Virus record (IMG/VR): IMGVR_UViG_3300025705_000005 | Span: 1-64,000 of that record | Reading direction: 5' to 3' (one strand) | Origin: a virus | DNA length: 64,000 nucleotides | Part shown: piece after piece, positions 14,342 through 35,400 of the stretch | Layout: every line of letters starts with the position of its first letter | Position numbering within the stretch: position 1 is the stretch's first letter | Notes under the pieces: generated by a model | What the model saw: only the letters and a program-made list of their open reading frames with translations | The model's database searches: none | Told to the model about the DNA's origin: nothing | Made by a program: the position numbers and the translations under genes

Positions 14342-15976
14342 TTACTGAATTCTGTTTAATGAATCTACATATACTTTACCATAGAACTCACCTCTTAACA
14401 TCTTCTTCGCGTAACGTGTCATAACACCTTTACGTGGAGTGAAGTTTTTAGGGTCATATACTAAAGGAGTCATAATTAACGGAATGTATGGTGCGTAAAC
14501 CGCTCCAGTTTCAAGGAATTGTGTTCCTCTGTAACCCATTAATATTACGTTCTCTTTCATGTAAGGATTCTTATAAACTTGGAATCTACTATTCAATGAA
14601 CCAACTTTTGTTACACCAAACGCAAATTGAGCATCACCATTGTCAGCTGAACTAGCATAACCTGGGATAGATTCAATTATTGTTGCAACATCTGGAGATA
14701 CAACTAAGAAATTAGCTCCACCTCTTAATGTTTTTTGGTGAATAGAGTTAGATACACCAGCAATAACTGTTCCAAGTGTTTGAAACCAATTTTGTTGGTT
14801 GTAAGCAGATGCGGCAACTTCAGCAGCACCCATTGGTGCAAATCCGTTTCCGTCCCATACTCTACCAGCTTGCGCTGACCAGTATCCAGTTGATTTAGCA
14901 TCTTGCATTAACATATCTAAGATTTCAAAATCGATTTCTTGCGAAATGTATTCTGATAACATAGATGTTAATTCAGCTTCTGCATCAATTGAATGATAAG
15001 CGTTTAAATCCTGTGCGAATTCAGGAGTCCATTGTGCTTTCAACTTACGTGTCTTAGCAACAATTGGTAAACTCTTCATTTCAACGTTCAATTCAGGAAT
15101 ATCCAAATCAACACCTTTATCTTCAAAGTCACCTCTAGAGATATCATCTGGTTGTTTGTGGTAAGCTACTTTAACGGTATCAGTTAAGATAGTCGCTGCT
15201 GTTACTTCAGCTACAAACGTTATATCACCATTATCAGCGATTGTAGTATACTGTGGGTATTGGTTAAGAATAGATGTGGTTGAACCAAGTAATCTAAATC
15301 CTCTAATTCCCTTATCATCTGCATTTTCAAATTCAGATGCATCGATTGTAATTTTACATACTGTTCCACCTGCTACCATTTTAGCTGCGTTAGATGCAGA
15401 AAATGCCGTGTCATAGTTGTAATCTATTGGTGATAATGCACCAGTTGCAAAAGTATTTGCAGCAGCATCTGCACCAATTGAATTGTCGCCTGTAGCTACA
15501 TCATTCAATGAGTATCCAAATCTACCTGCACCATACAAACCACCTGATGGGTCTGAAGTAGTTTCAGTAATACCGAATACAGAATCAGCTTGTGAATCTT
15601 TTCCAGAACCACTAGCGAATCCAGCTTGGTTAGTACCATATTTAAAATCTAGATAAAATACTAGACCTGATGGTAAGTTCATTGGTTGTACTGATACGAA
15701 ATCTTTTGCTACGATTTCACTAAAGATTCTTCTTACTAATGGTAATGCTACACCTGCCCACTCTTCTGAGTTTGCTGTAGTACCAGTAGAAGAAGCTTCT
15801 TTTACTAATTGTCTTGCTTGGTTTTCTAAAAGAGTTGCAACGCCTGCTTTTTCAACATCGTTTGCTATTCCTTCTAAAAGACCGGTTTTCTCCCACTTAC
15901 CAGCTAAAGCTCTTGTAGCTTCAGATAGTCTTGCAGTATGAGAAGAACCTTCATTTAAAATGTTTTTTAAATCCAT
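14342..15976 (-). CDS. 23: Major capsid protein, T4 gp23-like (544 aa)
   Basis: HK97-fold shell subunit. The length is close to T4 gp23 (521 aa). The N-terminal about 60 residues are helical and should be removed by the prohead protease; they contain ILNE, RLSE, LLE and LVKE sites, and the best candidate for the final cut is after E60 (LVKE, then ASSTGT), comparable to E65 in T4. The mature part begins with EEWAGVALPLVRRIFSEIVA, a strongly conserved gp23 segment, followed by VSVQPMNLPSGLVFYLDF. AKTRKLKAQWTPEFAQDLNA and GKVYVDSLNRIQ at the C-terminus are also typical. TAGGAGA gives one of the strongest Shine-Dalgarno sites in the window, and a strong terminator follows. Confidence 0.95.
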   Translation of the reverse strand: MDLKNILNEGSSHTARLSEATRALAGKWEKTGLLEGIANDVEKAGVATLLENQARQLVKEASSTGTTANSEEWAGVALPLVRRIFSEIVAKDFVSVQPMNLPSGLVFYLDFKYGTNQAGFASGSGKDSQADSVFGITETTSDPSGGLYGAGRFGYSLNDVATGDNSIGADAAANTFATGALSPIDYNYDTAFSASNAAKMVAGGTVCKITIDASEFENADDKGIRGFRLLGSTTSILNQYPQYTTIADNGDITFVAEVTAATILTDTVKVAYHKQPDDISRGDFEDKGVDLDIPELNVEMKSLPIVAKTRKLKAQWTPEFAQDLNAYHSIDAEAELTSMLSEYISQEIDFEILDMLMQDAKSTGYWSAQAGRVWDGNGFAPMGAAEVAASAYNQQNWFQTLGTVIAGVSNSIHQKTLRGGANFLVVSPDVATIIESIPGYASSADNGDAQFAFGVTKVGSLNSRFQVYKNPYMKENVILMGYRGTQFLETGAVYAPYIPLIMTPLVYDPKNFTPRKGVMTRYAKKMLRGEFYGKVYVDSLNRIQ

Positions 15977-16003: not shown

Positions 16004-17005
16004 TTATTTTAAACCAGCTAGCTTTTTCCATCTAGCGGCCATATCATTGCCCTCAGAAATTATTTTCTTTGGTGCTGAACTTTGTGTTGCTTTAGAAGCA
16101 TAACCTTCTTTTACAACAGTTCTTTTCTTTTTCGAAACATTTAAGTTTTCTGCTAATGTTGAGAATACCAATTTCACTTCTCTTACTGATGAAGTTCTAT
16201 CGAAGTTTTCAAGTACTTTTACTTTTTGTCCTTCGTTTAAATCAAAAGTTCTGAATAGTTTGTTAGTATAAAGTAACTTAGCGTTCAACAGATTTACTTC
16301 ATTGATAGTTTTTTGTAAACTTTCAATTGTTAAATAAGCTTCTTCTAATTCATCTTCAACACTTTCTTCTTCAACACTTTCTTCTTCTGATACTTCTTCT
16401 TCTGAATCATCTTCCATTTCTTTCAAAGTTCTAATAACTTCGTCTAAATCGATTTCTTCTTCTTCGTCCATATCATCTTCTTCAGCAACAGCTTCAGCTT
16501 CTTCTGATTCGTAAGTTTCTTCAGCTGATTCTTCATCATCTTCAGATACTTCATCATCAGCCATTTCAGCTTCTAATTCAGCGATTACAGATTCTAAATC
16601 TAAATCATCTTCATCCATATCTTCTTCAGATACTTCTGAATCTTCTTCAGATTCTTCTTCTTCGGTTACTTCTTCATCTTCTGATTCGTAAGCTACTTCA
16701 GCAGATTCTTCATCTTCTTCGGTTACTTCTTCTTCAGCAGGTACTTCTTCTTCACCTTCTAAGTTATCTTCAACTTCTTCTTCAGAACCCATTTCCGAAT
16801 CCATGTCAGCTTCCATTTCTGGTGCTTCCATTTCATCTTCCATTTCATCTTCATCAGCTTCTTCAGCTAATTTTGCAGAAATCATTGATTGTAACTTAGG
16901 TGTGAATGCTTCTTCTAAGGCTAACTTAGCGTTTGCTAGAGCAGTTTCTTTAACGGCTTTAGCATCAGCGATAGCTTCAGATAACAAATCTTTTCTATTT
17001 GCCAT
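16004..17005 (-). CDS. 22: Acidic prohead core scaffold protein, gp22-like (333 aa)
   Basis: Internal scaffold that guides shell assembly and is then degraded by the prohead protease. Residues 1-50 are helical (KDLLSEAIADAKAVKETALAN). Residues about 50-225 are an almost uninterrupted run of Glu, Asp and Ser with EEVSEEDEESAEE-like repeats. Residues 225-290 form a coiled coil (LEEAYLTIESLQKTINEVNL). The C-terminus carries KEG and ISEG sites and ends MAARWKKLAGLK. The acidic low-complexity block is longer than in T4 gp22. The position directly before the capsid gene fits gp22, and the assignment rests on position, composition and protease sites rather than clear homology. A TAGGAGA ribosome binding site is present. 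Confidence 0.85.
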   Translation of the reverse strand: MANRKDLLSEAIADAKAVKETALANAKLALEEAFTPKLQSMISAKLAEEADEDEMEDEMEAPEMEADMDSEMGSEEEVEDNLEGEEEVPAEEEVTEEDEESAEVAYESEDEEVTEEEESEEDSEVSEEDMDEDDLDLESVIAELEAEMADDEVSEDDEESAEETYESEEAEAVAEEDDMDEEEEIDLDEVIRTLKEMEDDSEEEVSEEESVEEESVEDELEEAYLTIESLQKTINEVNLLNAKLLYTNKLFRTFDLNEGQKVKVLENFDRTSSVREVKLVFSTLAENLNVSKKKRTVVKEGYASKATQSSAPKKIISEGNDMAARWKKLAGLK

Positions 17006-17513: not shown

Positions 17514-17909
17514 TTACTTTTCCATTCCTCTGAATGATTTAATTTTATATTTTTTGTAAAGTGCACCTATCTCTTTATGAAATGGTAACATTTGTTGATT
17601 GTAAACTTTAGCTGATTGGTCTTTCAGTTGAACCATTTGAATTATATCGTGGTCATCAGCTTTCTTAGCAAACTTAGTTCCAACATAACCTGATGCATTC
17701 TTTCTGATTACATCTGGATTTGGAACTTCATTAATAGTACCTTCATTAACTCCTTCAGATAAATCATCAATACCCTGCTTCATATCTCCAAATAGTTTTC
17801 CAAATTGTTTTTGTTGTTTGGAATCTAATTTTTTAATATTCTTTAGATGTTTCTTTACCATAAAAGATAAGTCAACTGAAATGTCTTGTAGTATATCTGA
17901 GTAATCCAT
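17514..17909 (-). CDS. Head-core-associated protein with clustered protease sites (131 aa)
   Basis: Not recognised by family. The protein is helical and charged, beginning MDYSDILQDISVDLSFMVKK. Residues 50-75 contain three closely spaced candidate prohead-protease sites (DLSEG, VNEG, TINEV). The C-terminal half (FAKKADDHDIIQMVQLKDQS, then KVYNQQMLPFHKEIGALYKKY) is helical. The ATG at 17909 was chosen because AGGATAACCACA gives a ribosome binding site and the gene then begins 5 nt after the preceding stop; an upstream in-frame extension would overlap that gene. It sits between the core polyprotein-like gene and bS21 and ends at a strong terminator. A minor core or internal head protein is likely. 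Confidence 0.7.
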   Translation of the reverse strand: MDYSDILQDISVDLSFMVKKHLKNIKKLDSKQQKQFGKLFGDMKQGIDDLSEGVNEGTINEVPNPDVIRKNASGYVGTKFAKKADDHDIIQMVQLKDQSAKVYNQQMLPFHKEIGALYKKYKIKSFRGMEK

Positions 17910-17914
17910 TGTGG

Positions 17915-20152
17915 TTATCCTATTTTCTTTAGTGAGTGTGTTTGTGTTGCCAACCAATATTTGTCTGGTAATCCAGCCATCTTAGATGCTTTCTTAATAG
18001 CTTCAACTGTATTTCTTGCTTTTACTTTATATACATTCTTCTTAGATAGTTTAACACCACCAAGATTCATATCAGCAAAACTCATTTCCCAAGTTGCAAA
18101 TCCACCTTCGTTGATTTCTTCTTCTTCTACTTCTTCGGATTCGTTTACTTTTTTATTACTAACTGAAGCTAACATATCTTTTGCTGATACTTTCATCTTC
18201 ATTAATTTAGATGATGGTAGTTCACCAAATCCAAATGACTCGTTTAACATAGAAGTAAGTTTCATTGATTTAGATTCGTTTGAAAATTCTTTTGCGTTTT
18301 CTTTATCATCCTTATCAACTGATTTTACAGGATACGTTTTACCATCTACAGAAAATTCACTATCACCATTTGCGATTGCTTTAGCTCTAGCGGCACCGAA
18401 TTCATTTCCTTCTTCAACCGTTTCTTCTTCATCATGCGATTCATTGATTTCGTAATACTTTCCTAACACTTCACCTATTTCATCATAAGTAGATTCTAAT
18501 CTCTGTTGTAGTGTTCCAACTTCTCTCAAAGTTTTCTCAAATATTCTAAATGATTCATTCATTCTCTTTACGTGTCTACTAACTGTAATACCATCAAATG
18601 AACCTTCAGTTTCTTTAACCATATTTTTACCAGCTGATTCTACTAACCCTCTGATTGATTCGTACACATCAGATAATCCTTCGTTTCTATATACAGTTTC
18701 ACCAAACGATTTGTATGCTTTAACTGCTTCTAAAAATGCTTGCTTTTGTTCCGTAGTCATTTCTGAAGATTCTTCTCTTCTCTCTTCATCGTTTTCTTTA
18801 ACGAATGGAGTGTGGAATGGGTTTGAATAAACTTTACCGTTTTCAAACGATTCTTTTAATATATCTTTTAGTTTCATAGTTCCCTCTTTTGTTATTTCCA
18901 TCATCTTCTTAGCCTCAGCTTCGATTTGTTTCTTAATGTTAGATGGTACTTTTTTATCGTAATATTTTATTTTTCCTTTTGAATCAATGTGAGCTACATT
19001 TTTGTAATCACCATTTTCTTCTTCGGCTTTATTGTAAACAGTCAATCCGTTTCCTTTACGAGCCATTCCAATATCGTACTTAGCTTCGTTCATTACTGAT
19101 TCGCTCATACTTAATATTGCTTTTTTCTTTTTCAACATTAGTTTAAGAAATAACTCTACCAATTTACCATTCTTATCATCAGTCATACGGTGTGGTCTAC
19201 CAACAAAATCTTGTCCGATACCATCCATCTTACCTGAACGTTGAAATTTAATCATACCTGATTGTGATTTAATTGCAAAGTCACCCATACCTAAATGTAC
19301 AAGCTCTGAATTTGGTAATACACCTTTACTATAGTTTACAAAGTTACTATCTACTATTGTTTGGTTTCCAACTCTTTCGTAGTGACCTACATCCTTACCT
19401 TCATTTACTACTGATTCATCAACTGCTGGTTTAATAAACATTAATCCAACTTTTGATTTAGGTACTTTTAATTTTTTGATTGCTAATAGTTTTGCGTTGT
19501 AAAGGTCTTTAGCTTCACCTTTTTTAATTTCAATTTTCTTACCATTGTATCCAGCAATCCATCCTGCAAACGTTGATTCGTTTACTGATTCGTTCTTTGT
19601 ATCTGAATACAAATCTTTAACCCACTCCATTGATTCTTTATTTGGCTTAACCTGCTTACCATACTTTTTGAAGAATTTTTTAATAAACTCTTCTTCAGTT
19701 GATGATGACTTAATTGTAAGGTGTATATCACTCATCACACCCTCTTTAAGTCCCTCAGGAACACAATTAGGAACATCTTTACCATTCTTCTTCTTCATAC
19801 CTACCATTTGGTAGTTCTTCCAACAGGGGTTATCATCTTCATTTACATTATCTCTCATTGCTTTTGATAAATCGCTGATGTACTTTAGTTCTTCTTTAGC
19901 ACCTTTGTGTTTAGCGTATCTATCTAAACCAAACGACATCATAATACCTAATGATAAATGTAATCTAGCTTTTGCTGCTTTTGGATACTTTCTACCATAA
20001 GGAGATGAGTTAAACCAATCAATCATAGCTTGTGCCATTTCTTTTGATAGTTTGATTCCCTCTACTCTATCAGTATTTCCTTTTACAATCTGTTTTAGTC
20101 CACCGATTGCTGAGATTTCGTTAAGTGAGTTTTTTATATCTGTTAATTTCAT
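17915..20152 (-). CDS. Polyprotein-like internal head/core protein (745 aa)
   Basis: A string of small unrelated modules separated by hydrophobic-Asn-Glu sites that resemble prohead protease targets (SLNE, SVNES, VVNEG, VMNEA, MNES, EINES, MLNES, KVNES, EINEG). Three segments begin with a related amphipathic leader: MKLTDIKNSLNE at the N-terminus, MKLKDILKESF near residue 425 and MKLTSMLNESF near residue 640. Recognisable modules include TFAGWIAGYNGKKIEIKKGE with VPKSKVGLMFIKP, and a basic C-terminal module ending LATQTHSLKKIG. The ATG at 20152 has AAGGGAAATAAT before it; the longer frame would overlap gp21. It lies directly after the protease gene. Delivery of several small proteins into the capsid is a fair inference, while a plain scaffold component is the alternative. 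Confidence 0.75.
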   Translation of the reverse strand: MKLTDIKNSLNEISAIGGLKQIVKGNTDRVEGIKLSKEMAQAMIDWFNSSPYGRKYPKAAKARLHLSLGIMMSFGLDRYAKHKGAKEELKYISDLSKAMRDNVNEDDNPCWKNYQMVGMKKKNGKDVPNCVPEGLKEGVMSDIHLTIKSSSTEEEFIKKFFKKYGKQVKPNKESMEWVKDLYSDTKNESVNESTFAGWIAGYNGKKIEIKKGEAKDLYNAKLLAIKKLKVPKSKVGLMFIKPAVDESVVNEGKDVGHYERVGNQTIVDSNFVNYSKGVLPNSELVHLGMGDFAIKSQSGMIKFQRSGKMDGIGQDFVGRPHRMTDDKNGKLVELFLKLMLKKKKAILSMSESVMNEAKYDIGMARKGNGLTVYNKAEEENGDYKNVAHIDSKGKIKYYDKKVPSNIKKQIEAEAKKMMEITKEGTMKLKDILKESFENGKVYSNPFHTPFVKENDEERREESSEMTTEQKQAFLEAVKAYKSFGETVYRNEGLSDVYESIRGLVESAGKNMVKETEGSFDGITVSRHVKRMNESFRIFEKTLREVGTLQQRLESTYDEIGEVLGKYYEINESHDEEETVEEGNEFGAARAKAIANGDSEFSVDGKTYPVKSVDKDDKENAKEFSNESKSMKLTSMLNESFGFGELPSSKLMKMKVSAKDMLASVSNKKVNESEEVEEEEINEGGFATWEMSFADMNLGGVKLSKKNVYKVKARNTVEAIKKASKMAGLPDKYWLATQTHSLKKIG

Positions 20153-20162
20153 ATTATTTCCC

Positions 20163-20780
20163 TTAGATTGAACAAACACCATCTATTTCACAGATGATAT
20201 CTCTTACCAATGTATTAATTTTTTTATATGAAGGTTTTTTACCCTTACTTACTACTGATTCATTTACAGGTCTCATAAATGCACCATGTGTTGATGGGTT
20301 TGAAACAAAATCCCAACAAATTAAATCAAAATCATCTTCTACAGTTACAGTTTTACCATTACTAGCTTCTTTTACAGAACCCATACCTCTTGAAGAGATA
20401 CCAACAGTACAACCTGCCTCTAAAAGTTCTTTGAGGATGTTGCCTGCTGGAGTTTTAAGTACTTCTACCTTACCCATTACATCATCACCCTTCCAATATA
20501 CTTCTCTGATGATATGTGAAGTATTTTTTAGTTCAACTACAGAAGATTCAGGATGGTCTAACTCACCAAATGCTCTATTTTCTTTAATTTCTCTACCTTT
20601 GTACTTTTCCACTTCTCTTTCTAAGATTGAACGTGGATAAACTCTACCATTTTGGTTTTCAGCTTCAGCTCTTTGTAGCACACCATTAACAATCAACCTA
20701 CCATTGTTATCTTCCAATGATTCATTGATTTGCCTCTTAGTTAGAGTAAAAGGAATTGTATCTATAAGTAATCTACCCAT
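20163..20780 (-). CDS. 21: Prohead core protease, T4 gp21-like (205 aa)
   Basis: Serine protease that matures the prohead by cutting scaffold and capsid proteins after [hydrophobic]-x-Glu. The catalytic region shows FGELDHPESS with H76 and CTVGISSRGMGS with the candidate nucleophile at S129 or S130, followed by DLICWDFVSNPSTHGAFM. This matches the phage U9/S80-type prohead protease pattern. Sites INES (residues 18-21) and VNES (172-175) near each end suggest self-processing. The length is close to T4 gp21 (212 aa). The ATG at 20780 overlaps the stop of the 44-aa gene (TAATG), with GGGGAG as ribosome binding site; an in-frame GTG at 20792 is less likely. It lies next to its probable substrates. 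Confidence 0.92.
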   Translation of the reverse strand: MGRLLIDTIPFTLTKRQINESLEDNNGRLIVNGVLQRAEAENQNGRVYPRSILEREVEKYKGREIKENRAFGELDHPESSVVELKNTSHIIREVYWKGDDVMGKVEVLKTPAGNILKELLEAGCTVGISSRGMGSVKEASNGKTVTVEDDFDLICWDFVSNPSTHGAFMRPVNESVVSKGKKPSYKKINTLVRDIICEIDGVCSI

Positions 20781-20914
20781 TATGCTCCCCACACTTTTCG
20801 TTTTCTATATAAATCAAACATGATTTGTGCTACTTCATATCTTATAAGTAGACGAATATTCTCCAAATCCTTATTTGAAAGTTCTTCTTTTAATATTTTC
20901 TTTTTTAAACTCAT
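20780..20914 (-). CDS. Very small coupled gene between gp20 and gp21 (44 aa)
   Basis: The product begins MSLKKKILKEELSNKDLENI and ends RKRKVWGA. It is helical and highly charged with no membrane segment. Its ATG overlaps the stop of the 162-aa gene (ATGA), and its stop overlaps the gp21 start (TAATG), so it is tightly coupled on both sides, which strongly supports real translation. In T4 the small core proteins gp67 and gp68 occupy this position. No sequence similarity to them can be claimed by eye, but a small basic core or protease-coupling protein fits. Confidence 0.72.
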   Translation of the reverse strand: MSLKKKILKEELSNKDLENIRLLIRYEVAQIMFDLYRKRKVWGA

Positions 20915-24249: not shown

Positions 24250-25821
24250 TTATAGTAACCAACTTATATCTTCATCACCTTTACCAGTTTTAACCTTCCA
24301 AGAATCCGTTGCTTTACCTTGGTTTGTTTTAAAAACACCTGAGTGTTTGGTAGTATGGTTTAATGCCCTTCTAGTTAATTCAATTCCTTGCTGTCTAAGT
24401 TTAAGTGCGGTATCTCTTACCCATAACCCTGTACAAAATGATATTGTTAAATCATCATTATATCCAGATTGAGCTTCTGCTCTACTTCCATTCCATATAA
24501 AAGTAAAAAGTTCATCAATTAATCTTTTGGAACGGATGATTGGAACTCTTTCTCTCATATAAGTATCTAATTTTGATATAACTAATGGGCGTGTTCTACT
24601 AGTCATTGAAAACCCTGGAACCATTTGGGATTTATCTTTTAAATCATATCCCTTTTGTAAATGTATATCTTCATCTACATATCCAAATTCTTTAAAAGAA
24701 TAATATAGATTAGAATAATTTCTATCTATTGCTTCTTGAATAACTGCCCAACCAATATTAGCGTTTTCAATCACTAATAATGCATCGTTCCATTCGGTTG
24801 CAACGTTTACTAACATATTACCATAATCTTTAGTACCAATCTTACCTTTGTACTCAGCAACCTGCTCTACACTCTCTACATCAATGACGTGGAATGCTGA
24901 ATAATCTGCTCCATCACCTCTAGCGACATCGGCAACTACTACATAATCTTTAGTATAATTTGGTTGTGACCATAACCAATAGTTTCCATCGAACCCTCTT
25001 TTTTCAACTGGTTCTTGTACATGAGTTTCTTCATACCATTTTAGGAGCTGCCCATCTACAACTGTATAACCAGAACTGATAAAATCACAATCACATTCCT
25101 GTGCTGCCATCTTCTCACCTAATAGTTGAGTTTGTTCTACTCTCCAAGATTCATTTCTTTCAGGGTGTACAGTCCAATGAAGTTTGATTGGATTCCAACC
25201 ATCATTCTGTTCACCTTTTAACCAAGTTTTGTGAAAGAAGTTACCAACACCATTGGGAGTTGATAATACAATTGCCTTACCACCAGTTGAAAGAGTAGAT
25301 TGAGCGGATGCCCAAATCTCATCTACACTTTTAATAAATGCAGCTTCATCTATAATCAACATTGATAATGCTTCTGAACGACCTGCATCACCACTAGCTG
25401 ATGTTGCTTTGATTGTTGAACCATTTCGTAATCGTAAGGATAGTTTGTTATCTTCTTCAGTTTCACCTCTTAGCCAACTCGGTAAGTTCTCATGCATATA
25501 CCTAACCTTAGTAACTAAGTTTTTAGCTACCTCTTGTTTAGTTGCAATTACCAATATGTTTTTATCTTCGTGAAATAACATCATCCATAAAGAATAACCT
25601 GCGGATAATGTTGAGATACCTAACTGACGTGATTTAAGGATTACATTGTATCGGTGGTCGTTAAACTCACCCATAACATCTTCTTGGAAAGGATACAAAT
25701 CAAAAAGAATCTTACCTCTCTTTGGGTGTTGTATATAACAATACTTCTTAAAGAAGTAAACTGGGTCTGTAGCACATTTAACGTACTCTTCCCTAATAAG
25801 TTCTTTTATGTTCTTGCTCAT
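24250..25821 (-). CDS. 17: Terminase large subunit, T4 gp17-like (523 aa)
   Basis: Packaging motor with an N-terminal ATPase and a C-terminal RNase-H-fold nuclease. Residues 62-71 (LKSRQLGIST) are the Walker A equivalent; the usual GK[TS] lysine is replaced by Ile, and the lysine sits at K63 before SRQ, a deviant form seen in some terminases. Walker B is MLIIDEAAF, and the coupling motif is VLSTPNG. Nuclease acidic residues are in VVVADVARGDGADYSAF, LLVIENANIGW and NDDLTISF. It starts at ATG 25821, overlapping the upstream stop by ATGA. Its length is shorter than T4 gp17 (610 aa), mainly at the N-terminus. No small terminase is evident nearby. Confidence 0.95.
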   Translation of the reverse strand: MSKNIKELIREEYVKCATDPVYFFKKYCYIQHPKRGKILFDLYPFQEDVMGEFNDHRYNVILKSRQLGISTLSAGYSLWMMLFHEDKNILVIATKQEVAKNLVTKVRYMHENLPSWLRGETEEDNKLSLRLRNGSTIKATSASGDAGRSEALSMLIIDEAAFIKSVDEIWASAQSTLSTGGKAIVLSTPNGVGNFFHKTWLKGEQNDGWNPIKLHWTVHPERNESWRVEQTQLLGEKMAAQECDCDFISSGYTVVDGQLLKWYEETHVQEPVEKRGFDGNYWLWSQPNYTKDYVVVADVARGDGADYSAFHVIDVESVEQVAEYKGKIGTKDYGNMLVNVATEWNDALLVIENANIGWAVIQEAIDRNYSNLYYSFKEFGYVDEDIHLQKGYDLKDKSQMVPGFSMTSRTRPLVISKLDTYMRERVPIIRSKRLIDELFTFIWNGSRAEAQSGYNDDLTISFCTGLWVRDTALKLRQQGIELTRRALNHTTKHSGVFKTNQGKATDSWKVKTGKGDEDISWLL

Positions 25822-26417
25822 TTCTTTCCCAATTTCCAAAGAAACTGAGTAGATATGATTGGTTGGAATTGGTCATTTAATCCAATACCCAATCCAAATG
25901 CCTGCTTCTTCTTTGTTCTAAGTAATATAGAACCACCAACATAATTAAATTGCTTAGTTGTTCCATTCAAACCAAATCCTACATAGAATTCGTTTTTATT
26001 AATATACTTTGTTTCAGTTACAGTAGTTGTTGGGTAGATTAAATCGTAGATTATTTTTCTTGATAAAATTTTGTTCTGTGAGATAGTATCTTTAATTGTT
26101 AAATTCAATGAATCTAATTGTTGAAAGTCCTCATAAACATATTTTGCGAAGTAATCCTCTAAAATAGATAGAGTATCAATTTTCTGAGTTAACCTAATGG
26201 TATCAATCTCAGTTTTGATTCTGGTAACTATTTTAGGAACGTATTTTGTAACTTCTTTAGTAATGGTGTCGTATTTCGTTTCTACCTTTGTGATAATAGT
26301 AGGCTCGGATGGAGTATTATCTACTCCACCTGTACCACTGCATTGTCTTAGAAAAATTATTACTATAATTAATACTAAGATTATCAGATTCTTAAAATTT
26401 CCGATATACTTTTCCAT
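25818..26417 (-). CDS. Membrane-anchored coiled-coil protein, possible lysis or envelope factor (199 aa)
   Basis: An N-terminal hydrophobic helix (residues 10-24, LIILVLIIVIIFL) is followed by RQCSG with Cys26. Residues 40-150 are a Thr/Lys/Glu-rich extended or coiled-coil stretch with repeated D(T/S)I patterns (KYDTITKEVTKYVPKIVTRI). The last 60 residues alternate aromatic and polar positions (EFYVGFGLNGTTKQF, then FGLGIGLNDQFQP) and end in FLWKLGKK, suggestive of beta strands that insert into an outer membrane. This anchor-spacer-beta architecture could bridge the Gram-negative envelope like a spanin, but no spanin homology is visible. It is tightly coupled to the terminase gene (ATGA). Confidence 0.6.
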   Translation of the reverse strand: MEKYIGNFKNLIILVLIIVIIFLRQCSGTGGVDNTPSEPTIITKVETKYDTITKEVTKYVPKIVTRIKTEIDTIRLTQKIDTLSILEDYFAKYVYEDFQQLDSLNLTIKDTISQNKILSRKIIYDLIYPTTTVTETKYINKNEFYVGFGLNGTTKQFNYVGGSILLRTKKKQAFGLGIGLNDQFQPIISTQFLWKLGKK

Positions 26418-26426
26418 TTGCTACGC

Positions 26427-26759
26427 TTATTTTTTAGTAGCAGGTTTTCTTTTTTTGTTTGCTGGCTTTCTACCTTTTCGGTTTCCACCCTTTGCAGCTT
26501 CTACAACATCTTTAGATTGTTTAGCTAAGTTTTTACCAGCTTCTTTAACGTCTTTAAGTTCTTCTTTAACTCTCTTAACTCTACGTTTAACTTCTGATTT
26601 TACTTCTGCTACTTCTTCTTTGATATCTTCTACTGTATCCTCTACTACATCAGGAATAAAATCTCCATCTCTATCTTTGATTTTTCCAGTGTATAGTAAA
26701 ACTGCGTATGTTGCTGCTATAACTGCTACAATTCCTACGATAATTAATAATGTACTCAT
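26427..26759 (-). CDS. Small membrane protein with DRDGDFIPD motif (110 aa)
   Basis: Residues 3-23 form a transmembrane helix (LLIIVGIVAVIAATYAVLLY). Residues 29-37 (DRDGDFIPD) match the Ca-binding thrombospondin-3-type repeat pattern DxDxDGxxD in shortened form. Residues 37-90 are a charged helix of Lys/Glu/Val repeats, and the C-terminus is very basic (RKGRKPANKKRKPATKK). A cytoplasmic basic tail or DNA/envelope contact is plausible. It forms a two-gene set with the 199-aa membrane protein 9 nt downstream, and its promoter-like motif is exactly 31 nt upstream. The function is unknown. Confidence 0.65.
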   Translation of the reverse strand: MSTLLIIVGIVAVIAATYAVLLYTGKIKDRDGDFIPDVVEDTVEDIKEEVAEVKSEVKRRVKRVKEELKDVKEAGKNLAKQSKDVVEAAKGGNRKGRKPANKKRKPATKK

Positions 26760-26822: not shown

Positions 26823-28607
26823 TTACCATTTTCTACAAGACCAATAGTTTGCTTTCCATTTTGGTCCAGGGTTATCACAATTCATTCTAGCTCTAAATGA
26901 TTTTCTAGCTTCTGGATTATCTTTTTTGATTACCATTCCTTTTTGCCCAAAGTGAACTACTACAACATTTCCTTTTTCGTTCTTAACATATACTTTGAAT
27001 TTTTTAGAATCACCTTGCATTGGTTTGTTAAGTTCTACTTTTCTACCTTGATACTCAGCCTCTTCAATTACTTCAGAAGTATTTTCTTTTTTCATAAGTT
27101 TGTAAGCCGTATGCCCCATCATTACGATACCACTCTTAACAAACTTATCTTTATTAGATTGTTTTTTAAGTGCATCATATACTTGAATCATTAGGTTTGC
27201 TGAATTCATATCAACTCTTACCTTCTTACCACTCTTAGTATCTTTAATCAAATCGTTTTGTGAATCTTTTACGATTTTTCTTAATTGAGTAATTACTTCA
27301 GGTTCTTTAGCTTCGTTGATTGATTCGTTTACACCTTTGAATCTTCTTTTAATATCGTTGTAAAATTTCTTATGATATTTTTTAGGAATATGGTCTGATT
27401 TTAAGTAATCATATAAATCTTGCTCATCACTCCACATTTGCCCTGCAGCTTCATGTTGTGTTGAACTATACCCAGCAGCGATATCTAACATAGTGTACAT
27501 ATCATTATGATTTAAACTTTCGTTTACCGATTCATTTATATCTTCAATGGTAGCTGCCATATTACCAATTGCCATAGTTACGTTTCCGTTTCTCTGATAT
27601 AAATAATACTTAACACCTTTTGGGTTTGTTACATTCTGAAGGATTATACGTTCTACTTTTTGTTTACCTACTAAAGTTTTACCCTTAGTTACTTTGAATT
27701 TTGCTTCATTACCACTACTCATTGATGAACCATACTTAATTGTAATCTCATCACCTTTTTTGAGTTTATCGTAAATCTTAAATCTGGCTTTCATATCCAT
27801 AGATTTACCTTCGGTTAATCCCTGTTGGTTGTTTATTTCATTTACTTTTTGTTCGATAGTATCAACGTGTGATTGAATATAAGAATGTTCTTGTTCCAAT
27901 CCCATTATTTTTGCCATCTTCATAATATTTTTTGCGATATTATTAGCAACCATTGAATAATCTCTCTCAGGGCTGTATCCTTCTCTCTGAATATGTTCTT
28001 CTATAAAGAAAAGTGCATCTTGTAATCTTACACTTCTTTCAGCCATATCCATATCAACACCTTTGGATTCTATATCACCATATAGTGATGATGCGCCAGG
28101 ACACATGTGGAAGTATTTAGTTTGGTATTCACCTATCTTAATTTCTTCTTTATCATTTTCATCTTCACCCATTGTACTCATATCTTCATACTCATGTGAG
28201 TGGGTTACTTCTTTAATATATTGAGTTACAAAGCTTCTAAAATTTTCATTCATTCCTTCTTTAAGAGAAGTTACTTTAGCACCTACGGGCCCACCAATAA
28301 ACATTGAAACAAAGAATGCTATCGCATCAATGATATCATACCCATCCCATTTTGCTGCCTTAGCGATTGGTTCACCATGATTCTGTTCGATTGAATCTTC
28401 CAAATCTTTTCTACCAGCATATTTGGATTGTTTTGCTTTAGGAAACATTGAATCCACTTTCTTAGCCTCACTATGAAAGTTTGCATCTCTTAGTGCTCCT
28501 ATTAGAATGTGTTTTACTCCATGATGTACTTCTGGGTCTGAACCTTTGTACCCTTTGAAGTATGCATCTAAGTCTTTTTTAACTTTTTTATTTAATCTTG
28601 GATTCAT
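26823..28607 (-). CDS. Modular, polyprotein-like virion protein (594 aa)
   Basis: Several small domains are joined by protease-like linkers. Residues 1-110 form an N-terminal domain (NPRLNKKVKKDLDAYFKGYK, then DAIAFFVSMFIGGPVGAKV, partly hydrophobic). The linker SLKEGMNENFRSFVTQYIKE follows. Later linkers are GLTEGK, INESVNES and VNESINEA. The C-terminal about 70 residues (YQGRKVELNKPMQGDSKKF, then KSFRARMNCDNPGPKWKANY, ending WSCRKW) are a conserved phage domain I know from marine T4-like head proteins, with two Cys near the end. The general architecture matches the 745-aa core protein at 17915-20152. It lies upstream of the membrane pair and downstream of the 194-aa gene (2-nt gap). Packaging in the head is inferred. 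Confidence 0.7.
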   Translation of the reverse strand: MNPRLNKKVKKDLDAYFKGYKGSDPEVHHGVKHILIGALRDANFHSEAKKVDSMFPKAKQSKYAGRKDLEDSIEQNHGEPIAKAAKWDGYDIIDAIAFFVSMFIGGPVGAKVTSLKEGMNENFRSFVTQYIKEVTHSHEYEDMSTMGEDENDKEEIKIGEYQTKYFHMCPGASSLYGDIESKGVDMDMAERSVRLQDALFFIEEHIQREGYSPERDYSMVANNIAKNIMKMAKIMGLEQEHSYIQSHVDTIEQKVNEINNQQGLTEGKSMDMKARFKIYDKLKKGDEITIKYGSSMSSGNEAKFKVTKGKTLVGKQKVERIILQNVTNPKGVKYYLYQRNGNVTMAIGNMAATIEDINESVNESLNHNDMYTMLDIAAGYSSTQHEAAGQMWSDEQDLYDYLKSDHIPKKYHKKFYNDIKRRFKGVNESINEAKEPEVITQLRKIVKDSQNDLIKDTKSGKKVRVDMNSANLMIQVYDALKKQSNKDKFVKSGIVMMGHTAYKLMKKENTSEVIEEAEYQGRKVELNKPMQGDSKKFKVYVKNEKGNVVVVHFGQKGMVIKKDNPEARKSFRARMNCDNPGPKWKANYWSCRKW

Positions 28608-29230: not shown

Positions 29231-31528
29231 TTAAGAGTAAAATAACCCTAAAATCTGATTTAGTGATGCGAATGTACCTGTTAATTTGTATGTTCCACCT
29301 TTATATGTGAATACAATACCCTCATTTGGTACAATCTTATCCTTACCACCTACAGCGGCTAATCTTTCTAATTCCATTTTTAATTTTGCAATCTTCTTTG
29401 GGTCTCCACTCTTCTGAACATCTTTGATTGTGGAATCCAATCTCTTCTTCATATCTCTAACTGCCTTATCAGGGTTAACTGTTAATGCTGAACCCATAAA
29501 TGAAAGTACATCTGCACCTACACCTAAGAATATATCTTCGAACTTACGAAGGTTTGTTTTAGATATTTTTGCTTTATCCTGTTTATCAGTTTTGGTTGCC
29601 CAATCTAATACTTTAGAATCAGAAATATTCTTTTTGTTTAATCTAAATGAGTTATCATAGAATGCCCATCTTTTAACCAACGCCATTTTAGTTTTGTTAT
29701 CTAATGTAGATGGTGAATTTTTATCAACATATTGTTCCCACCATGCTTGATGGTAATCTGCAACACCATTAGAATCTTTTAGTTTAAATTCTTTTTGAAC
29801 TTTGTTTAATTGTGAGTAGTACTTACCTTGTAACTTAGAAAGTTCTACCGATTGTGGTAGATTTACAACAGGTGGTCCTTGAATTGTATAATTCTTTTGA
29901 ACATCCTGATTGATTTGTTTAATCATACCAGCTAATATTCTAGCAGATGAAGTATCAGCTCCAATTGCTTTTCCATTCTCATCATAATCCATTGTTCCGT
30001 GGAATACTAAAAGTGGTTGTCCATAAGGAATCACATTTACTGATGTTGGGAATATAACTTCTATATTCATAAAGGATGAACCTTGATTGAATACTTTATC
30101 TCTTTGTGCTTTTGATAATCCTTTGATTGCTTTAGATAAATCTTCCATAGCGAAATTGTATGCATCGGTTAATCCACCTCTACCTTGAAACTTAGAAGCT
30201 ACTCCACTAATATCCAATGCGTTTTCACCACTATTCTTTAGGTGTCCACCATTACGAGCGGCGATTAATCCTTTATCATCTCTCCAACTAATAGCAAGTG
30301 CTTGTCCATCTGTTTTTTCTCTAGTGAATTCTAACTTACCATTTAAAGCGTTTGATATGATTGTTTTTAAATCACCAAACGTTAGATTCATCTCTGTATC
30401 AAATGGGTGAGCCATATGTCCGTATGCTCCACCTTCAGTAATCAATCCTTCTTTTACTATATTTTCTGGTGAAGTTTCTTTTTTAGGTTCATTCTTAGAA
30501 CTATCTTTTGATTTTTCAGCTCCTAAGAAATCAACAAGTTCATAACCTACCATAGTAGCTACTGTTGTTATCTTATCTGCCCATGCTTTGTAAGCATCAG
30601 TTCCTTTTAAATCAGTATATCTTTGAGATTGTGCATCTAATCCTGCAAGACCTGATGGGAAGTATGATACTGGGTATTTATCTTCAATATTTCTATTATC
30701 ATCAGCGTATATAGTTTCATCATCGGTATCTAATATATAATCAACTACCAACCATCCTAATCTTTTTGCTGTTTCATCACCAACTGCTTTATATGATTTT
30801 GAGTTACCATAATATGCGCCTGGCCCATCATCAACACCTTGTGAGTTACCACCAACACCTACTTTGGTAGAATTGGCTTCTGATAATAATTTATTAAAAT
30901 CAAATGTAGATAAAAAAGATTCCATCTGCTTTGATATCTTACTTAGTTTACCTGTTATGAATTTGAATATCTTTGGATTAAACTTTCCATCGTATGCTTT
31001 TTTGAAACCAGCCTTTTTTGAATCATCACTACCTAATGATAATAACTTTCTAACTTCAGTTCCACTAATACCACCACTTTGAGCTGGTGCTACATAAACA
31101 TATCCTTTATCTTCATATCCTTTTTCAATTCTATCAGGATGGTATGGTTCAAAGTATTTACCTTTTAATCTGTATCTATCCTTTTCACCAACTACAGTTA
31201 CAAATGCTGTTTTAGATGAATCAAACTTACCTATAATTTCTTTTGGGGCGTATGGGTTTTTGATTTGAACAATTTTAGATGATGGAATGCCAAACATCTT
31301 TGTCATAATCATTTTCTTTTCATTAAACTTAAATGGTGATTTGATATTATCTGTTTTATTAGATGTACCAATCCACACATTATCTCTACCAAATTGTTTT
31401 ACCAAATGTTCGTAGGTAGCATTATGCCCTTTATGAAAGGGTTGAAATCTACCAGCGTAAACTACTACCTTTTTTTCTATATTCTCAGTTAAGATTTCCT
31501 TAACCCATTCTTTAATTAATTTTCCCAT
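29231..31528 (-). CDS. Nucleotidyltransferase-ligase-like fusion protein (765 aa)
   Basis: Two enzyme-like domains in one chain. Residues about 20-185 form a cytidylyltransferase/NMNAT-type Rossmann domain: GRFQPFHKGH (26-35) carries the HxGH motif, and SGGISGTEVRKLL carries the ISGTxxR motif. Residues about 365-765 resemble the covalent nucleotidyltransferase fold of DNA/RNA ligases: EKTDGQALAISW has KxDG with K405 (motif I), NIEVIFP near residue 490 fits motif IIIa, EGIVF at 736-740 fits motif IV, and YKLTG at 747-751 is a partial motif V lacking the second lysine. A helical linker lies between. The N-terminus KLIKEWVKEILTEN carries an ILTE protease-like site. The substrates cannot be read off. 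NAD metabolism, RNA repair or capping are possibilities. Confidence 0.82.
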   Translation of the reverse strand: MGKLIKEWVKEILTENIEKKVVVYAGRFQPFHKGHNATYEHLVKQFGRDNVWIGTSNKTDNIKSPFKFNEKKMIMTKMFGIPSSKIVQIKNPYAPKEIIGKFDSSKTAFVTVVGEKDRYRLKGKYFEPYHPDRIEKGYEDKGYVYVAPAQSGGISGTEVRKLLSLGSDDSKKAGFKKAYDGKFNPKIFKFITGKLSKISKQMESFLSTFDFNKLLSEANSTKVGVGGNSQGVDDGPGAYYGNSKSYKAVGDETAKRLGWLVVDYILDTDDETIYADDNRNIEDKYPVSYFPSGLAGLDAQSQRYTDLKGTDAYKAWADKITTVATMVGYELVDFLGAEKSKDSSKNEPKKETSPENIVKEGLITEGGAYGHMAHPFDTEMNLTFGDLKTIISNALNGKLEFTREKTDGQALAISWRDDKGLIAARNGGHLKNSGENALDISGVASKFQGRGGLTDAYNFAMEDLSKAIKGLSKAQRDKVFNQGSSFMNIEVIFPTSVNVIPYGQPLLVFHGTMDYDENGKAIGADTSSARILAGMIKQINQDVQKNYTIQGPPVVNLPQSVELSKLQGKYYSQLNKVQKEFKLKDSNGVADYHQAWWEQYVDKNSPSTLDNKTKMALVKRWAFYDNSFRLNKKNISDSKVLDWATKTDKQDKAKISKTNLRKFEDIFLGVGADVLSFMGSALTVNPDKAVRDMKKRLDSTIKDVQKSGDPKKIAKLKMELERLAAVGGKDKIVPNEGIVFTYKGGTYKLTGTFASLNQILGLFYS

Positions 31529-32448: not shown

Positions 32449-35400
32449 TCAATTTTGCACCAGTCCCTGTCCACTACGAGTAGTCAGAGTGTATGTTTGT
32501 AATAGTAACCCAAAGCTTGAGTAGCCCGATGTAATTGCACCATCATCAAATTGTATCCCATCATCTTGAATAGATAATTCTAATCTAGCAATATCATCTG
32601 ACCCAGCGTTTGTTGGGAATAATATATCATTTATTACATATGGTGGTGCTACCTGTAATGTTAAATTCATTGTTACACTTCCACCCAAAGAACCATCTAA
32701 AACTAATGTAGTGTGGCCACTAACTGTTTGATAATAAGAACCTGAATTTGCACTATTAACATTTACAAACTTTTCAACAATATTAGTTGCGGTTACGAAT
32801 CCTTCTTTAGTTACTTCAAAACCAGGACTTACAAAACCACCTAATTTCATAGAACCACTATCTAAACTTATAACTGAACCCTCATTAGGTGATAGGTTAA
32901 GTGATTGTAGTTCACCAGTCTTAATTTGCCTTCCACCAATTTGTGTTCCAAGGTTTGTTTTTGGTTTTATTACTAAATCTCTAACATACGCAGAGTTAAG
33001 TCCATTCCCAGACCAATTTAATATATTCATTGAAAAGAATTCAGTCCCTGCTGATGGGGTGTAATTCGTTTGATATGTAATCCATTCTTGTGGCCAATAA
33101 GAACCATTTAAGTTATTACTTACATTACCTACACCAGCTGAACCTGATATTTTTGTCCAACTTAAAGTAGCTTCACCACTAGTACTAAGGGAACCTGGTT
33201 CTGAATTACTGCTGTTGGCATATGAAGCATGGGTTATAAATTTTACACCATCTTCTCGTGCACTTGCATCATTAGATTCATACACTCTTAGATACATACC
33301 TGTTGTACCTGATGTATAGTTGGTAGCACCACCTTTAACAGTTATTGTTATTCTATATGCAGATGCTTCCTTTTTTATAATTTTGGTTGCCATTCCAATA
33401 GTAGTATCCCCAGGGTTGGATAATTCTACAACTTTACCAATAGTACCCCCGAAATCACTAAATTTTATATTACTTGCGACATTATTCCCATATGTTGAAA
33501 AGAAATCTGCAGGTCTACCATCCAATGCGCTAATACCAGCCGATGGGTTTGTTATTTCGTTAAATAGATTTTCTACAGCTTCAGCAGGGTCACCAAGTGT
33601 AATTGCATTCCCATCCGCATCCAAAACAGAGATAGCTCCAGTTACTTGTACTGCCCCACCACTATCTATTTCGAAATTAGGAGTACTGATTTCTAATTTA
33701 CCAGCAGTATGATTAAATCTCATGTAATTACCACCAAGTTCACCAACTGCGAATTTAGCATTTGGTCCATCTAATAATATACCTTTTTCTGTAGTGTATG
33801 CCCCAGTACCACCAATTTTCATTACACCATCATTAAGATATAACGCAGTACCTGTATCGGTTGATAAGTTGTTTGATTTTATAGTACCTGTTGTAATTGA
33901 ATCACCACTAATTCTACTTGTACCACCAGAACTAAATTCTTTTATTTTTATATAATCAACATGCGTTATACCCTGCGTATCATTGTAGTTCAATAATAGA
34001 TATGCTGATATGAATCCATTATTGATTTCAGCTCTCAACGTTCCAGGATTAGTTTTATCATCGTGCATCGTAGTATCACCATTTGAACCACCTGTTCTTG
34101 TTGCTCCTTTGAAATAACCTTTGAATGTTTGGAAATACCCAGTACCATTACCAGTACCTAAATTATTAGATGATAGAGTAATATAATGACCTGAAGTATT
34201 ATTATTCCCATCATAACCAACTCTAGTTACACCATCTGATTGCATTCCGTTTATACCAACATATGCTCTTGTATTAGATGTACCAGCCGTTCTTTTGATT
34301 CTAACTTCTACCTCATATAATGATGATTCATTAAATGGTATCAATGTATTAGAAATTATATTTGCTTCATCATCACCACTATTGTTTCCTACAACAAGCG
34401 CTTTACCTGAAATACAATCCGTATCTGCCTCTAATGATGGAGTAGAACTACTCGCCCCTTTGTTCCAAAACCAAGCATCACCTGTCCCATCCATCTTTGG
34501 AGCATTACCACCATTTGTATCACCTACAGCTGAGTATTGTGAGAAATCATCAAAGAATACTACATTACCATCTCCGTTATCAGGTCTACCTCTAAAGGTT
34601 ACATCACCTGCGATTTCTACGTTTCCATTCGAACCACTAATATATTGTGAAGTTCCACTTCCTAATAAGAACTTATCTACTTCTATATTTGCGTTTGAAC
34701 CACTAATTAATAATGATTTATTAGTATTGTTCCATGCTAAGTAACCATCGCTTGGATTACTTGCTCCACTAGCATTTCCACCTAAGTAAAAATTACCACC
34801 ACTATCTAAGAATGATGTGAAATCTGCTAATGTTGCGGTTGTTCCACTACCAATTGCCCCATGATATCCAAATACATCTGAGTTCATTAGTAAACCTGCT
34901 GCTAACGTACCTTGTACTCCACTTAATGATGCATCTAAGAATGAGAAGTCTTGATTGTTTGCTCCTTGGTCTCCCTGCGGTCCAGCTTTAGATTTAGCTA
35001 TTGAGTAAGTTTTAGATATTGAAACACCACCACTAACAGCTGTAAGTATTACAGAACCACTATCGGGTGTTAATGCTGAAATTGTTAGTACTCTGTTACT
35101 GATTGTTGCAGTGAGGTCTGTTGAGTTTTGGTTTGTTACAGTATAATTAGATGATACGTTTGTTACACCTTCATATATAAACATTTCAGTACCACTACCA
35201 TTAAATGATGAAACAGTTCCATCATTAGCAGCTGGAACTACATCAGCTTCAGATGTTAGGAATGCCGTTACTGCATCTACCCCACCAGCACCAGCTGCGC
35301 CAGGTTGAACTGCTACAATTGTAACTGTATCAAATGTTAATTCAGTTGTTGAATCAGCTGCTTCAGATACACTAACTGTAATTGTTTTTGGAGTTGAGAA

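What the first reader, a model, noticed from the sequence alone, without database searches (positions are those of the whole stretch)
17915..20152. Polyprotein-like core protein: small modules separated by hydrophobic-Asn-Glu sites next to the prohead protease
The 745-aa protein contains roughly ten [LIVM]-N-E-[SGA] sites, and three internal copies of an MKL(K/T)xxLxE(S) leader, each starting with Met, as if separate proteins had been fused. The same leader type opens the major capsid protein (MDLKNILNEG). gp21 itself has such sites at both ends. This suggests the phage loads several effector-sized peptides into the capsid as one precursor, cut by gp21.
Basis: partly seen in the sequence, partly recalled or inferred. 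Interest (0 to 1): 0.72.

Follow-up and report, generated by a model that had tools for sequence, protein, structure and literature searches.

The report
Phage head polyprotein built from cassettes
A marine T4-like virus of bacteria appears to load many small proteins into its capsid as one long chain with its own protease's cutting sites between the links, and relatives swap, add and drop links exactly at those sites, so the chain looks like a mix-and-match payload.

Summary
The ORF (17915-20152, minus; 745 aa) lies directly after the gp21-type prohead protease gene. It has 8 [LIVM]NE[SGA] sites against 0.23 expected (0 of 1000 shuffles). All 17 such sites in the 42 ORFs scanned fall in six head genes. 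There are three MKL-type leaders, one N-terminal and two internal. In related contigs, cassettes of mostly 60-110 aa are gained, lost and reordered at the sites: 30 non-redundant homologues show 28 architectures. One cassette follows 11 unrelated upstream cassettes, and 18 of 18 junctions read [VMI]NE|. A second ORF (26823-28607) and the small gene 17514-17957 are further carriers, and cassettes move between all three. In other phages single cassettes are separate genes with their own leader. Two kinds of internal leader junction carry a translated Shine-Dalgarno, apparently a gene-fusion scar. The T4 protease rule (L/I-x-E) and the conserved LVKE|A site of this capsid protein point to gp21 as the cutter. 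One cassette is homologous to a domain of conjugative-element 'polyvalent' proteins. Cleavage, retention in the virion and injection were not shown. New variant of T4-type internal head proteins.

The parts
17915..20152 (-). Polyprotein 1, 745 aa (755 aa from the upstream ATG at 20182)
   Evidence: homologues
20117..20152 (-). Leader 1 MKLTDIKNSLNE| (residues 11-22)
   Evidence: sequence; same leader type opens free-standing cassette genes
19838..20116 (-). Cassette A (23-115, ISAIGGLK...RDNVNE|), pI 9.8
   Evidence: 9 unrelated downstream partners; own gene in L033; in the 147-aa gene of L041
19577..19837 (-). Cassette B (116-202, DNPCWKNYQMVGMKKKNGKDVPNCVPE...SVNE|)
   Evidence: CWxxY..CVP motif in many marine phages
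19400..19576 (-). Cassette C (203-261, STFAGWIAGYNGKK...SVVNE|), pI 9.7
   Evidence: 6 unrelated upstream contexts
19085..19399 (-). Cassette D (262-366, GKDVGHYERV...SVMNE|), pI 9.4
   Evidence: follows the core in L028/L030/L039
18878..19084 (-). Cassette E (367-435, AKYDIGMARKGNG...)
   Evidence: 11 unrelated upstream families, 18/18 junctions [VMI]NE; homologous to a polyvalent-protein domain; pLDDT about 70-80
18851..18877 (-). Leader 2 MKLKDILKE| (436-444), ATG preceded by AGAGGGAACT
18440..18850 (-). Helical core segment (445-581), with an internal MNE|S site at 541-543; the constant part
   Evidence: relatives at 28-100% identity next to gp21 in 48 loci; alone as a 154-aa gene in Mel-JY01
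18266..18439 (-). Segment G (582-639, ...EEGNEFGAARAKAIANG...NESKS)
18239..18265 (-). Leader 3 MKLTSMLNE| (640-648), no Shine-Dalgarno
18107..18238 (-). Segment H plus acidic linker (649-692, SFGFGELPSSK...VNE|SEEVEEEEINE|)
   Evidence: opens a separate gene in L195 and L198
17918..18106 (-). Cassette I (693-755, GGFATWEMSFADM...), pI 10.1
   Evidence: pLDDT 84-93 over most of its length; end of small separate genes in L052, L055
20163..20792 (-). gp21-type prohead protease, hydrophobic-x-E sites near both ends
   Evidence: Peptidase_S77 E 6e-35; GELDHP and GISSRG motifs and end sites in relatives
26823..28607 (-). Polyprotein 2, 594 aa; cassettes 1-121, 122-257, 258-359, 364-428, 433-516, 517-594
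   Evidence: 4 sites vs 0.12 expected; relatives swap cassettes
17514..17957 (-). Third carrier (147 aa; likely start MDYSDILQD, ATG at 17909), GVNE|GTINE|
   Evidence: relatives carry up to five cassettes
14342..15976 (-). Major capsid protein; leader MDLKNILNE|G and conserved LVKE|A maturation-type site
   Evidence: Gp23 E 1.4e-77; alignment of N-termini
16004..17005 (-). gp22-like acidic scaffold protein by position and composition
   Evidence: 88 Glu of 333 aa and one [LIVM]NE[SGA] site; no Pfam or PHROG match to gp22

Best explanation
The protein is a prohead polyprotein. A conserved helical core segment with its own leader enters the prohead scaffold and carries covalently attached cassettes with it. 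The gp21-type protease then cuts after hydrophobic-x-E (mostly V/I/M/L-N-E before S, A or G) and frees about nine or ten pieces of roughly 30-180 aa inside the head. The most likely fate of the small, often basic, variable cassettes is to stay with the DNA and be ejected into the host, as with T4 internal proteins, while core and acidic linker pieces are discarded. Polyprotein 2 and the 147-aa gene are parallel carriers that draw on an overlapping pool of cassettes. The chain evolves by in-frame fusion and exchange of once-separate leader-bearing genes, with the protease sites as joints. Shown here: the sites, their non-randomness and restriction to head genes, cassette exchange exactly at them, free-standing versions, and purifying selection on each cassette. 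Inferred: cutting by gp21, presence of cassettes in the mature head, injection and anti-defence roles (the last two about 0.5 on their own).
For: Sites 8 vs 0.23 expected, 0/1000 shuffles, and only in head genes. Unrelated upstream cassettes joined to the same cassette exactly at hydrophobic-NE: 18/18 and 12/12. 30 homologues, 28 architectures; 112 cassette families in 82 carriers. Permuted order of 80-95% identical segments. Free-standing leader-plus-cassette genes. Core alone in Mel-JY01. T4 gp21 rule L/I-x-E (PMC9026906); conserved LVKE|A in MCP and end sites in gp21. dN/dS 0.09-0.43 per cassette. Folded islands coincide with cassettes E, G, I. Cassette E shared with proteins of the polyvalent type. 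Shine-Dalgarno upstream of internal leader ATGs 19/30 vs 13/425.
Against: No protein data: neither cleavage nor virion content was measured. T4 scaffold proteins gp22, gp67 and gp68 are also cut at many sites and mostly expelled. 35% of NE windows in homologues lack a hydrophobic P3, so not every NE is a site. No cassette has an assigned biochemical function, and no fold match was found.
Confidence: 0.78

Rival explanations
1. A disposable multi-site scaffold or core protein in the style of T4 gp22, gp67 and gp68: the sites serve to chop it so that the pieces leave the head, and the cassettes are only bulk filler of the core.
For: Position between gp21 and gp22/gp23; a helical core segment is the constant part; T4 core proteins are cut into many pieces and mostly removed (PMC9026906).
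Against: Filler would not need dozens of distinct, individually conserved domains (dN/dS 0.09-0.43) that also occur as free genes and in other carriers, one of them shared with polyvalent-type proteins of cellular mobile elements.
Confidence: 0.25
2. An uncut multidomain protein whose hydrophobic-NE stretches are only flexible linkers that tolerate domain shuffling.
For: No cleavage has been shown; shuffling alone needs only linkers.
Against: The linker keeps one narrow sequence, the T4 gp21 rule, which is also the conserved MCP and gp21 self site, and it is confined to head genes.
Confidence: 0.07
3. Separate proteins are made from the one gene by internal translation starts at the leader ATGs rather than, or besides, by cutting.
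For: 19/30 distinct internal leader ATGs carry a Shine-Dalgarno against 13/425 of other internal ATGs. The internal junction ESKGNT|M resembles the real gene start QSKGNN|M at the nucleotide level.
Against: Most cassette junctions have no leader and no ATG. In several relatives the leader's ATG is ATA, ATC or ATT while the leader peptide is kept (L013, L016, L019, L021). Leader type NESKS|MKLTS has no Shine-Dalgarno. Junction types are few, so the statistic is not built on independent events. It may coexist with cutting.
Confidence: 0.1

Closest known systems
T4 internal head proteins IPI, IPII, IPIII and Alt with capsid targeting sequence (CTS)
   Same: Short N-terminal leader ending in x-E cut by the gp21-type protease; small variable cargo in a conserved head-gene setting (PMC3012670, PMC9026906)
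   Different: T4 makes each cargo from its own gene with its own CTS; here many cargos share one chain and most carry no leader of their own
T4 core proteins gp22, gp67, gp68
   Same: Located with gp21 and gp23 and cut at several hydrophobic-x-E sites
   Different: Their pieces are mostly discarded and they are not described as exchangeable conserved domains; no sequence match found here
Giant-phage head proteins with long propeptides (phiKZ, SPN3US)
   Same: Prohead-protease sites after x-E, several sites per substrate
   Different: There the sites clear long propeptides from one mature protein; apart from self-cleavage every identified gp245 cut makes an N-terminal propeptide (PMC10052503)
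Polyvalent proteins of phages and conjugative elements (Iyer et al. 2017, PMC5512222)
   Same: Many small domains in one chain, thought to be delivered with DNA and in part released by proteolysis; cassette E is shared with proteins of this type
   Different: Those use an embedded metallopeptidase and large catalytic domains; here no peptidase domain was found in the chain and the joints match the separate head protease

Membership tests
T4-type internal head proteins | N-terminal leader ending in hydrophobic-x-E | tested here: met
   MKLTDIKNSLNE| and two internal leaders; free genes with MIKLxxxLxE leaders
T4-type internal head proteins | Each cargo is a separate gene with its own CTS | tested here: not met
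   Fused in the window; separate genes exist in L033, L051, L056
T4-type internal head proteins | Present in the mature head and ejected into the host | not testable with these tools
   Needs virion proteomics
T4 core proteins gp22/gp67/gp68 | Sequence relationship to gp22, gp67 or gp68 | tested here: inconclusive
   No Pfam or PHROG core-protein match; such proteins diverge fast
T4 core proteins gp22/gp67/gp68 | Several protease-type sites in one chain beside gp21 and gp23 | tested here: met
Polyvalent proteins | Embedded peptidase (MPTase) domain | tested here: not met
   No peptidase family in Pfam or NCBIfam scans
Polyvalent proteins | Shared domains with conjugative-element members | tested here: met
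   Cassette E 50-57% identical to a domain in large proteins with N6-methylase/Eco57I and SNF2/ResIII domains, two of the three scanned also with MutS_I
Prohead protease family S77 (the 20163-20792 product) | Family profile match and conserved His and Ser motifs | tested here: met
   PF03420 E 6e-35; GELDHP and GISSRG present in all relatives listed

The most novel reading that the evidence does not exclude
A plug-in payload system: a lineage of T4-like phages carries an overlapping pool of more than a hundred small injected proteins as interchangeable cassettes in two or three polyproteins, brings them into the prohead by one covalently attached core segment, unpacks them with the capsid maturation protease and injects them to counter host defences. 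The head protease site acts as the joint for recombination.
Probability: 0.5. Interest if true: 0.9.

Novelty: new variant of a known kind. Interest (0 to 1): 0.75.

Why it matters
In the T4 internal-protein system described in the sources read here, each cargo is a separate gene with its own targeting leader. A cassette polyprotein is a different way to load and evolve a payload, comparable in logic to eukaryotic virus polyproteins but matched to the head-maturation protease. Because cutting sites are also the recombination joints, they make an index: more than 100 cassette families without assigned function can be read off marine metagenomes as candidate injected early proteins. It predicts exact protein termini in virions, which makes it directly testable. 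No paper found in the held library describes it (open-licence papers only).

Tried and rejected
Pfam, NCBIfam and PADLOC scans of both polyproteins and of homologues gave no convincing domain; weak hits (CdiI_2, Big_8, POB3_N) fell below curated cut-offs and were dropped. Foldseek on both AlphaFold models gave nothing below E 0.001, as expected from low overall confidence (mean pLDDT 44.5 and 57.8). A first automatic clustering of segments merged unrelated families and was redone with two-sided coverage. A first regular expression for cassette A downstream contexts was wrong and gave nothing; corrected. L105 cassettes found nothing in plasmids. Chimeric metagenome assembly as the source of the rearrangements was considered and rejected: the same architectures recur in independent data sets (window with L003 and L004; L008/L009; L013/L014; L019/L020; L021-L023; L033-L037), frames stay open, and each cassette shows dN/dS 0.09-0.43. 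The MutS, helicase and methylase parts of the cellular E-domain proteins were not detected in the two polyproteins.

Full report
WHAT IS THERE. The ORF lies on the minus strand at 17915-20182 (755 aa), and the likely start is the ATG at 20152, preceded by AAGGGA. It lies directly downstream of a gp21-type prohead protease (20163-20792; Peptidase_S77 E 6e-35) and upstream of a 147-aa gene, a gp22-like acidic protein and the major capsid protein (Gp23 E 1.4e-77). The record is a 74.5-kb virus contig from IMG/VR. Its capsid protein is closest to Microcystis phage Mel-JY01 (60.5%) and Flavobacterium phage immuto (55%). The host is unknown.

THE MOTIF IS NOT CHANCE. [LIVM]NE[SGA] occurs 8 times against 0.23 in composition-preserving shuffles, and hydrophobic-NE 10 times against 1.25 (0 of 1000 shuffles reached either). 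Of 42 ORFs scanned in the window, the strict motif occurs only in six head/core products (17 sites in all) and never in the large tail-type proteins. In 233 distinct NE windows from homologues, P3 is hydrophobic in 65% against 12% in control proteins, with consensus E-S-[VILM]-N-E|[SAG]. Three MKL leaders are present: one N-terminal, two internal.

HOMOLOGUES SWAP CASSETTES AT THE SITES. A scan of viral contigs gave 77 loci. At the same place, after gp21, complete homologues range from 190 to 1001 aa. Segments of mostly 80-95% identity appear in different orders: L028, L030 and L039 start with the core segment and have D, C, E and H after it, where the window has A-B-C-D-E-core-G-H-I. Cassette E is joined to 11 unrelated upstream cassettes; all 18 distinct junctions read [VMI]NE|. 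The AKEPEVIT cassette of the second polyprotein has 10 unrelated upstream partners, 12/12 ending [VIM]NE|. The widespread AEYQGRK cassette is preceded in 22 distinct contexts by hydrophobic-x-E (IEE, LNE, INE, IKE, ITE, LTE and similar). After cassette A come 9 unrelated cassettes. Across 82 non-redundant carrier ORFs there are 112 cassette families, 46 of them recurrent; the 30 relatives of this protein have 28 different architectures. In an automatic test homology breakpoints fall within 5 residues of a site in 36% of cases against 12% by chance; many of the rest are small indels.

THREE CARRIERS, ONE POOL. The 594-aa ORF 26823-28607 is a second polyprotein with 4 sites against 0.12 expected and the same behaviour in its relatives. 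The 147-aa gene 17514-17957 is a third: its relatives hold up to five segments (L017, 409 aa). One cassette family (F21, GIRFAEA/GMRFAEA) is found in all three carriers, and others in two. In L107 the N-terminal cassette of polyprotein 2 sits in one ORF with cassette C of polyprotein 1.

FUSION OF ONCE-SEPARATE GENES. In L033 cassette A is its own gene, MIKLKDILTE|ISAIGG..., and another cassette is MIKLKNLLSE|KADPAL...; L056 and L051 have more. In Mel-JY01 the core segment alone forms a 154-aa gene after gp21. In L195 and L198 segment H opens a separate gene. Internal leader ATGs carry a Shine-Dalgarno in 19 of 30 distinct contexts against 13 of 425 other internal ATGs. The junction residues ESKGNT| are a translated ribosome-binding site of the same type as the real start (QSKGNN|M). 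Caveat: the internal junctions fall into few types, so these are not 30 independent events, and one type has no Shine-Dalgarno. In some relatives the leader's ATG has become ATA, ATC or ATT while the leader persists, so the start codon is dispensable there.

WHO CUTS. T4 gp21 cuts after L/I-x-E (PMC9026906). In this lineage the capsid protein keeps LVKE|A or variants (LVSE, LLDE, IVSE, LISE), and gp21 itself keeps hydrophobic-x-E|small at both ends in nearly all relatives. The protease keeps its GELDHP and GISSRG motifs. That gp21 cuts the polyprotein is therefore an inference with good support, not a demonstration.

WHAT THE PIECES DO. Each cassette is under purifying selection (dN/dS 0.09-0.43). 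A, C, D and I are basic (pI 9.4-10.1); acidic pieces are G, the end of the core and the linkers. AlphaFold gives confident islands for cassettes E, G, I and part of B and no fixed arrangement between them (mean pLDDT 44.5, pTM 0.20); polyprotein 2 is similar (pTM 0.28). The alignments were shallow, so low confidence elsewhere does not show disorder. Cassette E is 50-57% identical to a domain in large proteins with N6-methylase or Eco57I and SNF2/ResIII domains, two of the three scanned also with MutS_I, and two plasmid records match too. These look like the polyvalent proteins of conjugative elements described in PMC5512222, where MutS-I outside MutS is said to occur only in polyvalent proteins and which are thought to act in the recipient cell. 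This is the best hint that cassettes act after delivery. No cassette has an assigned activity.

MECHANISM. Best reading: the core segment and leader bring the chain into the prohead core; gp21 cuts it; basic cassettes remain with the DNA and are injected; core and linkers are discarded. Confidence is 0.78 for the cassette polyprotein processed in the head and about 0.5 for injected effectors. The main rival is a disposable multi-site scaffold.

NOVELTY. Full-text searches found T4 internal proteins, giant-phage propeptides and polyvalent proteins, but no description of a cassette polyprotein cut by the head protease (open-licence papers only). It is a new variant of the T4 internal-protein strategy.

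Noticed in passing
26826-27059; L118, L159, L126, L134: The C-terminal cassette of polyprotein 2 (EYQGRKVELNKP...NCDNPGPKWKANYWSCRKW, phrog_7595) is very widespread (most of 351 viral hits; Pelagibacter, Roseobacter, Methylophilales and Flavobacterium phages). It also occurs in small single-cassette ORFs and near the N-terminus of a larger ORF that looks like a different prohead protease.
   Followed up: partly
L164-L168; L207:2272-3333: Cassette E domain occurs in methylase-helicase proteins of Clostridia and other MAGs, and in a 353-aa protein of a 158-kb virus contig without the polyprotein.
   Followed up: partly
L160:16007-18532 (Flavobacterium phage immuto gp79): An 841-aa protein of a cultured phage has seven hydrophobic-NE sites and two copies of a related HWWQAK-type domain; a ready laboratory system.
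   Followed up: partly
29231-31528: 765-aa protein with an N-terminal cytidylyltransferase-like domain next to polyprotein 2; immuto has a NadR-annotated relative at a similar place, and a Kyanoviridae phage (C48C1) has a CVP cassette in its cytidylyltransferase gene.
   Followed up: no
25818-26417 and 26427-26759: Two small ORFs with an N-terminal hydrophobic stretch between terminase and polyprotein 2, the second with a Lys/Arg-rich tail; function unknown.
   Followed up: no
32449-42486: A 3345-aa protein with no [LIVM]NE[SGA] site although NES occurs 6 times against 1.2 expected; not explained.
   Followed up: no
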